Assembly: GCF_005780165.1 (NCBI RefSeq) | Contig: NZ_VAUV01000007.1 | Span: forward strand, 186,001 to 250,000 | From: Phragmitibacter flavus | GTDB lineage: Bacteria > Verrucomicrobiota > Verrucomicrobiia > Verrucomicrobiales > Verrucomicrobiaceae | DNA: 64,000 nt | Direction of reading: 5' to 3' | Shown here: one piece after another, positions 56,793 through 58,899 of the stretch | Layout: the number at the start of each line of letters is the position of its first letter | How positions within the stretch are numbered: the first letter of the stretch is position 1 | Made by a program: the position numbers and the translations under genes | Notes under the pieces: model-generated | Told to the model about the DNA's origin: nothing | What the model saw: only the letters and a program-made list of their open reading frames with translations | Database searches by the model: none

Positions 56793-57824
56793 ATGATTCG
56801 AAATCTGATTTTTGACTGGTCGGGGACGCTGGCGGATGATTTGGCGGCAGTTTTGACGGCGACCAATGGAGTGCTCGGACATCATGGCCGTGCGGTGATG
56901 GATCGGGAGGAGTTTCGACGTTTGTTCCGGCTGCCTTACACGGAGTTTTATCAGGACGTGTTGCCAGGGATCTCGCTGGAGTCGGTGAAGGAGCAATACA
57001 TGAAACATTTTCCATCGGATCATTCGGTGGTGCCGATGCTGCCGTTTGCGAGGGAGTTTCTGGAGTTTGGTGTGGCGACAGGGAGGCGGATGGTGGTGAT
57101 GAGCAGTGCGCCTGAAGAACATGTGCGGGCGCAGGCGGAAGCAAATGGGGTGACGCATTTTTTTGAGGCGATCTGGGGTGGGATCATCGACAAACGGATC
57201 GCGGTGCATGAGTTGCTGGCGGAGATGAAGATGAGACCGGAGGATACGGCGTTTGTGGGCGACATGCGCCATGATATCGATGCGGGGAAGGCGGGTGGGG
57301 TGCTGTCGGTGGCGGTGGCAACGGGATATGAGTCGGTGGCGTTGTTGATGGAGTCGGTTCCTGACGTGGTGTTGCCGGATTTGTCGAAGCTGTCGTTGCT
57401 GTTGGGTGGGGCGCTGCCGGTGGCGACCGTGGGGGCGTTGATTTTTGATTCGAAGGGGAAGGTGCTGCTGGTGCGCACACACAAGTGGCAGAACAGGTGG
57501 GGGATTGCCGGTGGGAAGATTCGACGTGGGGAGTCGGCGATGGATGCCTTGCACCGTGAGACGATGGAGGAGACGGGATTGGAGATCGGCGACGTTGAGT
57601 TGGTGATGGTGCAGGATTGCATTGAGCCCGAGGAGTTTGAGTCGTCTGCGCATTTTGTGTTGTTGAACTACACGGCGACAGTCGTGGGTGATGATGACAT
57701 TGAGGTCACATTGAATGACGAAGCGGAAGAGTTTTGTTGGGTTTTGATGGAGGAGGCTTTGAACATGGATTTGAACAAACCGACGCGATGGTTGATCGAA
57801 GAGGTCGCCCAAAAAAAGAGATGA
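56793..57824 (+). CDS. HAD-like hydrolase fused to a Nudix hydrolase
   Basis: 343 residues with two enzyme domains. Residues 1 to about 205 are a HAD domain: FDWSGTLADD near 7 (nucleophile Asp8, with Ser where phosphatases usually have the second Asp), VVMSSAPEEH as motif II, and FVGDMRHDIDAGKAGG as the C-terminal acidic motif. Residues of about 211-343 are a Nudix domain with a perfect Nudix box: GKIRRG-E, seven residues, then RETMEETGL. The Nudix half would cleave a nucleoside-diphosphate-linked or pterin triphosphate substrate. The gene ends 6 bases before folB, which suggests a place in folate synthesis, perhaps the missing dihydroneopterin triphosphate step. That function is inference. 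Confidence 0.9.
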   Translation: MIRNLIFDWSGTLADDLAAVLTATNGVLGHHGRAVMDREEFRRLFRLPYTEFYQDVLPGISLESVKEQYMKHFPSDHSVVPMLPFAREFLEFGVATGRRMVVMSSAPEEHVRAQAEANGVTHFFEAIWGGIIDKRIAVHELLAEMKMRPEDTAFVGDMRHDIDAGKAGGVLSVAVATGYESVALLMESVPDVVLPDLSKLSLLLGGALPVATVGALIFDSKGKVLLVRTHKWQNRWGIAGGKIRRGESAMDALHRETMEETGLEIGDVELVMVQDCIEPEEFESSAHFVLLNYTATVVGDDDIEVTLNDEAEEFCWVLMEEALNMDLNKPTRWLIEEVAQKKR

Positions 57825-57830
57825 ATTGCC

Positions 57831-58193
57831 ATGAGTGATGAAATTTTGATTCAGGGATTGGAGTTGCCGGTGCGCATTGGAGTGCCGGAAGCGGAGCGTG
57901 CTGCGTGGCAGGTGTTGCGTGCAGACATCCGGCTGAAGCTGGCGCGTGGGTTTGATGAGATGGCTGACGATTTGTCAGAGACGGTGAACTATGCGGAGTT
58001 GAGCGATGCGGTGAAGGCGCTGGCGGCGGAGAGGCCGCGGCAGTTGTTGGAAACGTTGGCGGCGGAGCTGGTGGCACTGGTGCTGAATGCCGATGGAGTA
58101 ATGGAAGTGGAGGTAATGCTGAAGAAGCGAATTTTGCCCGGCACCGATTTTGTTGCTGTTCGAATGCATCGAATCCGGGAATCGCAGGCGTAG
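57831..58193 (+). CDS. folB: Dihydroneopterin aldolase family protein
   Basis: 120 residues, the usual FolB length. It opens with ILIQGLELPVRIGVPEAERA, where the Glu lies in the conserved E-x-E-R site. LSETVNYAELSDAVKALA and RQLLETLAAELVAL follow, with the substrate-anchoring Glu in the LLET motif, then a C-terminal lysine in MLKKRILPG. FolB converts dihydroneopterin to hydroxymethyl-dihydropterin and glycolaldehyde, or its epimer. It is translationally close to the HAD-Nudix gene. The exact activity of FolB-like proteins varies (aldolase, epimerase or FolX), so the label is kept general. Confidence 0.85.
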   Translation: MSDEILIQGLELPVRIGVPEAERAAWQVLRADIRLKLARGFDEMADDLSETVNYAELSDAVKALAAERPRQLLETLAAELVALVLNADGVMEVEVMLKKRILPGTDFVAVRMHRIRESQA

Positions 58194-58248: not shown

Positions 58249-58899
58249 ATGAATTTGTTATCCCCTACAAAAGCACCTTCCACCATCGGGTCATGGATCG
58301 GGCAAGCCAAGATGTCTGAGCTGCCTACCTCCACCGACCCGGATTACGATTTGATCGTCCGTTCCCAGAACGGCGACACGCACGCGTTCGATGATCTGGT
58401 CCGCAAATACACGCCCAAGCTTTATGGGCTGGTCTACAACATGACGTCGAACCGTGATGACACGGCTGACTTGTTGCAGGACATTTTTGCCAAAGCCTAC
58501 CGTTCTTTGAAGCGCTTTCAGGGCAAAAGCACGTTCTACACATGGATTTATTCCATCAGCGTGAACATGACGCTGAATTTCCTGAAAAAGCGTGGTCGCT
58601 ACACGAAGTTGAGCCTGGATGATGTGGACAACGGGATTCAAAATGACCCGGATTTCATCAAGCTCACCTCTGGGGGAAATCCCTTGAAGGATGTTAATGT
58701 TCATGAACTGCAAAAAAGGTTGAACGAGTCGATGCAGAAGCTGTCAGAAGACCACCGAACAGTGGTGACCCTCTATGACATTCAAGGTTTGCAGCATTCA
58801 GAAATCAGCAAAATCTTGGGAGTCAGTGAAGGCACGGTCCGTTCGCGGCTCTTCTATGCCCACCGGCAATTGCAGAACTATTTGGAAGACTTCAGATAA
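58249..58899 (+). CDS. ECF-type RNA polymerase sigma factor
   Basis: 216 residues. Region 2 covers about 40-110 (FDDLVRKYTPKLYGLVYNMT, ADLLQDIFAKAYRSLKRF, TFYTWIYSISVNMTLNFLKK) and region 4 covers about 160-215 (HRTVVTLYDIQGLQHSEISK, LGVSEGTVRSRLFYAHRQL). The spacing without regions 1 and 3 marks a group 4 (ECF) sigma factor. The ATG at 58249 has AGGATG upstream; an alternative ATG is at 58312. The next gene is a one-TM protein that could be the regulator. A FecR protein elsewhere in the window may be the counterpart of another sigma factor. Confidence 0.93.
   Translation: MNLLSPTKAPSTIGSWIGQAKMSELPTSTDPDYDLIVRSQNGDTHAFDDLVRKYTPKLYGLVYNMTSNRDDTADLLQDIFAKAYRSLKRFQGKSTFYTWIYSISVNMTLNFLKKRGRYTKLSLDDVDNGIQNDPDFIKLTSGGNPLKDVNVHELQKRLNESMQKLSEDHRTVVTLYDIQGLQHSEISKILGVSEGTVRSRLFYAHRQLQNYLEDFR

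What the first reader, a model, noticed from the sequence alone, without database searches (positions are those of the whole stretch)
56793..58193. HAD-Nudix fusion directly upstream of folB
Folate synthesis needs conversion of dihydroneopterin triphosphate to dihydroneopterin; in E. coli the Nudix NudB removes pyrophosphate and an unspecific phosphatase removes the last phosphate. Here a Nudix domain with a perfect box is fused to a HAD domain and lies 6 bases from folB. A one-protein solution for both steps is conceivable. Counter-evidence: the HAD motif is DWSGT, lacking the second Asp typical of phosphatases and closer to phosphonatase-like members, so the HAD half may do something else.
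Basis: partly seen in the sequence, partly recalled or inferred. Interest (0 to 1): 0.65.

Follow-up and report, generated by a model that had tools for sequence, protein, structure and literature searches.

The report
HAD-Nudix-folB folate enzyme fusions
A two-domain bacterial protein next to a vitamin B9 gene belongs to a family that is repeatedly fused, in different combinations, to the next enzyme of folate synthesis, which makes its HAD half a good candidate for the phosphatase of that pathway that still has no assigned gene.

Summary
Window 56793-57824 encodes a 343-aa HAD_2-Nudix protein, six bases upstream of folB (57831-58193).

An orthologous HAD is adjacent or fused to folB in 35 of 40 related genomes that carry it, and in 56 of 80 named Verrucomicrobiota loci. 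The pieces occur in every combination: HAD-Nudix+folB, HAD+folB, Nudix+folB, HAD-FolB in one frame (all 14 HAD-bearing Akkermansia-like genomes), and HAD-Nudix-FolB in one frame (four genomes, 497 aa). The HAD tree needs at least three changes for HAD-FolB. The genome has FolE2, one FolB and one FolK.

Best explanation: the Nudix domain removes pyrophosphate from dihydroneopterin triphosphate, the HAD domain removes the last phosphate, and FolB takes the product. The literature still ascribes the second step to a non-specific phosphatase.

The HAD motif is DWSGT in 111/111 homologues. Asp+2 is replaced by Ser, and an invariant Asp16 lies where a canonical paralogue has Ser. The phosphonatase reading is not supported.

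Substrates are inferred from context, not shown. The HAD is absent from most of the phylum, so other enzymes can do the step.

The parts
56793..57404 (+). HAD domain (residues 1-204), C1-cap phosphoglycolate-phosphatase-like fold; proposed dihydroneopterin monophosphate phosphatase
   Evidence: Pfam HAD_2; AlphaFold model mean pLDDT 89.9; best solved-structure matches are phosphatases, Z 23-26 over about 205 residues
56814..56828 (+). HAD motif I, D8-W9-S10-G11-T12; Ser in place of the second Asp
   Evidence: identical in 111 of 111 homologues
56838..56840 (+). Asp16, invariant; Ser in the canonical HAD paralogue of the same genome (DLDGTLLDS); candidate replacement general acid
   Evidence: D in 111 of 111; paralogue sequence L165; catalytic role inferred
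57405..57422 (+). inter-domain linker (residues 205-210)
   Evidence: alignment A2
57423..57821 (+). Nudix domain (residues 211-343); proposed dihydroneopterin triphosphate pyrophosphatase
   Evidence: Pfam NUDIX; fold matches NudI and AtNUDX1
57513..57581 (+). Nudix box, residues 241-263
   Evidence: sequence; box present in 61 of 61 homologues
57825..57830 (+). 6-base gap between the stop of the fusion gene and the ATG of folB
57831..58193 (+). folB, dihydroneopterin aldolase; the only FolB in the genome
   Evidence: Pfam FolB; one match in G000

Best explanation
The gene pair makes the middle of the pterin branch of folate synthesis. FolE2, encoded elsewhere in the genome, makes 7,8-dihydroneopterin triphosphate. 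The Nudix domain removes pyrophosphate, the HAD domain removes the last phosphate, FolB cleaves the resulting dihydroneopterin, and FolK continues. In relatives the parts occur as HAD next to folB, Nudix next to folB, HAD-Nudix plus FolB, HAD-FolB, or one HAD-Nudix-FolB protein. Shown: domains, conserved linkage, repeated fusions, presence of FolE2, FolB and FolK, conserved catalytic residues. Inferred: both substrates, the order of steps, any channelling, and that Ser10/Asp16 support phosphatase chemistry.
For: HAD-FolB in one open frame: L035, L038, L161, all 14 HAD-bearing Akkermansia-like genomes in the phylum sample, and 6 of 80 named loci. HAD-Nudix-FolB in one frame of the same length in four genomes, with purifying selection on all three domains (dN/dS about 0.05-0.17) and a stop-free linker (dN/dS 0.53-0.89). 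HAD-FolB needs 7 label changes on the HAD tree, at least 3 forced by well-supported branches; HAD-Nudix-FolB needs 1-2. In G010 the Nudix alone, without the HAD, lies next to folB, so each domain is linked to folB on its own. FolE2 and FolK are present and FolE absent. D8, K134, D157 and D161 are invariant in 111 homologues, and position 105 is Ser or Thr in 108. Nearest HAD folds include AlnB, the alnumycin P phosphatase. Literature assigns the monophosphate step to a 'non-specific phosphatase' (PMC1971073; PMC5372827), and a 2007 table marks FolQ and FolB of Parachlamydia as fused proteins.
Against: No assay. The HAD orthologue is absent from most genomes of the phylum sample that have FolB (113 of 134) and from 16 of 57 relatives that keep FolB (a 17th, G010, has the Nudix only), so it is not required where other phosphatases exist. 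Some clades keep HAD or HAD-Nudix away from folB. The second Asp, the usual general acid of HAD phosphatases, is Ser in all members. The Nudix domain falls into no named subfamily (29.5-30.1 bits to NudB against a cut-off of 103).
Confidence: 0.62

Rival explanations
1. The Nudix domain handles dihydroneopterin triphosphate, but the HAD acts on a by-product, for example inorganic pyrophosphate or a stray phosphorylated pterin or glycolaldehyde species, so it helps the pathway without catalysing the monophosphate step.
For: HAD fold matches include the Bacteroides HAD pyrophosphatase and phosphoglycolate phosphatases; the catalytic motif is non-canonical.
Against: The HAD is kept next to or fused with FolB without the Nudix in many genomes, which fits a substrate of FolB better than a product of the Nudix.
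Confidence: 0.15
2. The HAD removes all phosphates from dihydroneopterin triphosphate or accepts several pterin phosphates, and the Nudix is a later accessory.
For: HAD without the fused Nudix next to folB is common (19 of 80 loci), and the Akkermansia-like genomes have HAD-FolB without the Nudix.
Against: Those genomes hold other Nudix proteins that could do the first step; G010 keeps Nudix without the HAD; C1-cap HADs of this type usually act on phosphomonoesters (general knowledge).
Confidence: 0.1
3. HAD and Nudix are house-cleaning nucleotide or phosphoglycolate hydrolases that merely share an operon with folB.
For: Best curated models are generic (phosphoglycolate phosphatase, NudI); HAD is off folB in several clades, next to carB-like or other genes.
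Against: Repeated fusion to FolB itself in several lineages is hard to explain without a shared pathway; no fusion to the sigma factor gene that follows folB was seen in the loci examined.
Confidence: 0.1

Closest known systems
FolQ / NudB, Nudix dihydroneopterin triphosphate pyrophosphatases (Lactococcus lactis, E. coli, Arabidopsis)
   Same: Nudix hydrolase encoded with a folate gene; catalytic box; proposed same substrate. AtNUDX1 is among the better sequence and fold matches.
   Different: Fused to a HAD domain; far below the NudB model cut-off; substrate not tested.
Parachlamydia FolQ and FolB marked as fused proteins (PMC1971073, Table 2)
   Same: Precedent outside Verrucomicrobiota for fusion of a folate dephosphorylation enzyme and FolB.
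   Different: No HAD domain is mentioned there; sequence not compared here.
C1-cap HAD phosphatases of the Gph/AlnB type
   Same: Fold over about 205 residues (Z 23-26), nucleophile Asp8, Ser/Thr of motif II, Lys134, GDxxxD.
   Different: Second Asp of motif I is always Ser; extra invariant Asp16; linked to folB.
Phosphonoacetaldehyde hydrolase (phosphonatase)
   Same: Also lacks the second Asp of motif I; same superfamily fold (1swv, Z 20.7).
   Different: Phosphonatase has Ala there and a Schiff-base lysine in the cap (general knowledge); here Ser and no conserved cap lysine (highest 43% at one column).

Membership tests
Nudix hydrolases | Nudix box with catalytic Glu residues and Nudix fold | tested here: met
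   Pfam E 1.3e-21; box in 61 of 61 homologues; fold matches
NudB (NCBIfam NF006961) | score over the curated cut-off of 103 bits | tested here: not met
   29.5-30.1 bits; only one of 14 controls passes, so this excludes E. coli-type NudB, not the activity
dihydroneopterin triphosphate pyrophosphatase (functional class) | pyrophosphate release from dihydroneopterin triphosphate | not testable with these tools
   needs an assay
HAD phosphatases, C1 cap | HAD core and cap fold; nucleophile Asp, motif II Ser/Thr, motif III Lys, motif IV acids | tested here: met
HAD phosphatases, C1 cap | second Asp of motif I (general acid/base) | tested here: not met
   Ser10 in 111 of 111
phosphonoacetaldehyde hydrolase | Schiff-base lysine in the cap | tested here: not met
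   no conserved lysine in columns 13-82; 22.4 bits to TIGR01422 against a cut-off of 220
FolB (dihydroneopterin aldolase) | Pfam FolB domain over cut-off | tested here: met
   72.7 bits against 31.8; slightly under the narrower TIGR00525 cut-off, 64.6 against 72.15, and over that of the domain model TIGR00526

The most novel reading that the evidence does not exclude
The DWSGT HADs are a family of dedicated dihydroneopterin monophosphate phosphatases, filling the one step of the pterin branch without an assigned gene. They work with a rearranged HAD active site (Ser at +2, invariant Asp at +8), and in some Verrucomicrobiota they form a single trifunctional HAD-Nudix-FolB enzyme from dihydroneopterin triphosphate to 6-hydroxymethyldihydropterin.
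Probability: 0.5. Interest if true: 0.75.

Novelty: new variant of a known kind. Interest (0 to 1): 0.6.

Why it matters
Removal of the last phosphate before FolB is still credited to a non-specific phosphatase (PMC1971073, PMC5372827, PMC6451014). A HAD family that is repeatedly fused to FolB gives a concrete, directly testable gene for that step, including in Akkermansia-like bacteria, and a natural multifunctional enzyme for pterin production. It would also be a HAD phosphatase family without the usual second aspartate.

Tried and rejected
NudB absence as a test: not informative, because the NCBIfam model passes in only one of 14 control genomes. Own-genome alternatives: the best NudB-like hit (C10) is an RNA pyrophosphohydrolase type, and the HAD beside it is a canonical DLDGT paralogue. 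Co-occurrence of HAD and FolB by genome: not informative, since 134 of 145 genomes have FolB; all 21 clear HAD carriers have it, but that is expected fairly often. Joint absence of HAD and FolB in G161 may be the loss of one fused gene, so it is not counted as two independent events. Long FolB frames in other clades (L144-L150) look like non-coding upstream sequence and were rejected as fusions. Phosphonatase reading: rejected. The triple-fusion model has weak confidence in its Nudix part and linker (mean pLDDT 71.1) and is used only for domain layout. No paper held was found to name a dihydroneopterin monophosphate phosphatase of the HAD type; most subscription papers are not in that library.

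Full report
Observation. The ORF at 56793-57824 encodes 343 aa with a HAD_2 domain followed by a Nudix domain, and folB starts six bases after its stop codon. Motif I of the HAD is DWSGT. The Nudix box has every catalytic residue, with Thr at one usually hydrophobic position. The coordinates and the reading of the finding are right.

Conservation of the neighbourhood. The window lies in a 5.9-Mb Verrucomicrobiota genome, 99.9% complete. Among 57 genomes (its own and relatives), 40 carry a clear orthologue of the HAD, and in 35 of them folB is the next gene or part of the same reading frame. The exceptions are four genomes of one other family in the same order (f4) and one (G029) whose contig ends just after the gene. 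A scan of named genomes gave 80 loci: 27 HAD-Nudix with folB next, 19 HAD with folB next, 6 HAD-FolB, 4 HAD-Nudix-FolB, 1 with folB nearby on the other strand, and 23 without folB in the stretch held, five of which had under 1 kb downstream. Of those 23, 16 are HAD-Nudix and 7 are HAD alone.

Fusions. HAD and FolB share one open frame in L035, L038 and L161 and in all 14 HAD-bearing Akkermansia-like genomes of the phylum sample. The fifteenth Akkermansia-like genome lacks both; it keeps FolE2 and FolK. HAD, Nudix and FolB share one frame of identical length, 497 aa from the HAD start, in four named genomes (L052, L057, L061, L064). In those four the three domains show dN/dS of about 0.05-0.17, and the stop-free linker 0.53-0.89, so the reading frame looks like coding sequence throughout. 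One genome, G010, has the Nudix alone next to folB and no HAD orthologue. On a tree of 111 HAD domains the HAD-FolB state needs seven changes (gains or losses), at least three of them forced by well-supported branches; the triple fusion needs one or two. Repeated fusion to the same partner is the strongest evidence for a shared pathway.

Pathway. FolE is absent and FolE2 present; FolK is present; FolB is single. FolE2-type GTP cyclohydrolase makes dihydroneopterin triphosphate (PMC1971073), which must lose pyrophosphate and then phosphate before FolB. A Nudix enzyme is known for the first loss (FolQ in Lactococcus and the Arabidopsis homologue; PMC1971073). The second is credited to a non-specific phosphatase there and in later papers. 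HAD plus Nudix immediately before, or fused to, FolB fits these two steps. This is inference from context.

HAD chemistry. The nucleophile D8, K134, D157 and D161 are invariant in 111 homologues, and motif II is Ser or Thr in nearly all, so the domain should be a working HAD hydrolase. The second Asp of motif I, which normally acts as general acid, is Ser in all 111. Position 16 is Asp in all 111, where a canonical paralogue in the same genome (FDLDGTLLDS) has Ser. The two changes look like a swap, and Asp16 may take over the general-acid role; this was not measured. The model of the window protein is confident (mean pLDDT 89.9). Its HAD part matches phosphoglycolate-phosphatase-like structures and AlnB at Z 23-26, and its Nudix part matches NudI and AtNUDX1. 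No lysine is conserved in the cap, so the phosphonatase comparison does not hold.

Limits. Most FolB-bearing genomes of the phylum sample have no such HAD, and 16 close relatives lack it while keeping FolB, so another phosphatase can presumably serve. Some clades keep HAD-Nudix away from folB. The NudB model is too narrow to show whether another pyrophosphatase exists. The other Nudix proteins of the genome look like RNA pyrophosphohydrolase, NudE-like, an isopentenyl-diphosphate-isomerase-like domain fused to RsmA, and unassigned types. Distribution outside Verrucomicrobiota was not tested. Much of the linkage is inherited together, so the counts of genomes are not independent events; the tree-based count of fusions is the fairer measure.

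Verdict. The proposal of a two-step dephosphorylating protein is well supported by genome context, with the substrates unproven. I found no description of HAD-FolB or HAD-Nudix-FolB fusions in the papers held.

Noticed in passing
L135, L136, L138 (Methylacidiphilum-like genomes G092, G104, G119): FolB is in one frame with an N-terminal domain; in L135 Pfam identifies it as a circularly permuted YpsA (SLOG) domain, and L138 starts with similar sequence. This is a different FolB fusion.
   Followed up: partly
L131, L133, L134: In Methylacidiphilum-like genomes the stand-alone DWSGT HAD lies next to a LOG-type (lysine-decarboxylase-like) gene and a homocysteine methyltransferase-methylenetetrahydrofolate reductase gene (L131 scanned, L133 and L134 by similar sequence).
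   Followed up: partly
L004:1417-2733 (G000 contig 13): RsmA/KsgA rRNA methyltransferase fused to a Nudix or isopentenyl-diphosphate-isomerase-like domain in the window's own genome.
   Followed up: no
L007:1438-3042 (G000 contig 5): One open frame holds a REP-associated tyrosine transposase region and a Nudix domain.
   Followed up: no
window 58249-58899 and L171, L172, L175, L176, L181: A sigma-70 family (ECF-type) sigma factor gene follows folB in the window and in many relatives, including several without the HAD.
   Followed up: partly
L167-L170: Four genus-g8 relatives lacking the HAD have folB next to a PilT-like secretion ATPase gene (Pfam T2SSE in L168; the others by similar sequence) instead.
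   Followed up: no
L100: A contig labelled Candidatus Paceibacterota carries a gene nearly identical to Verrucomicrobia subdivision 6 copies, so it is probably misbinned.
   Followed up: no
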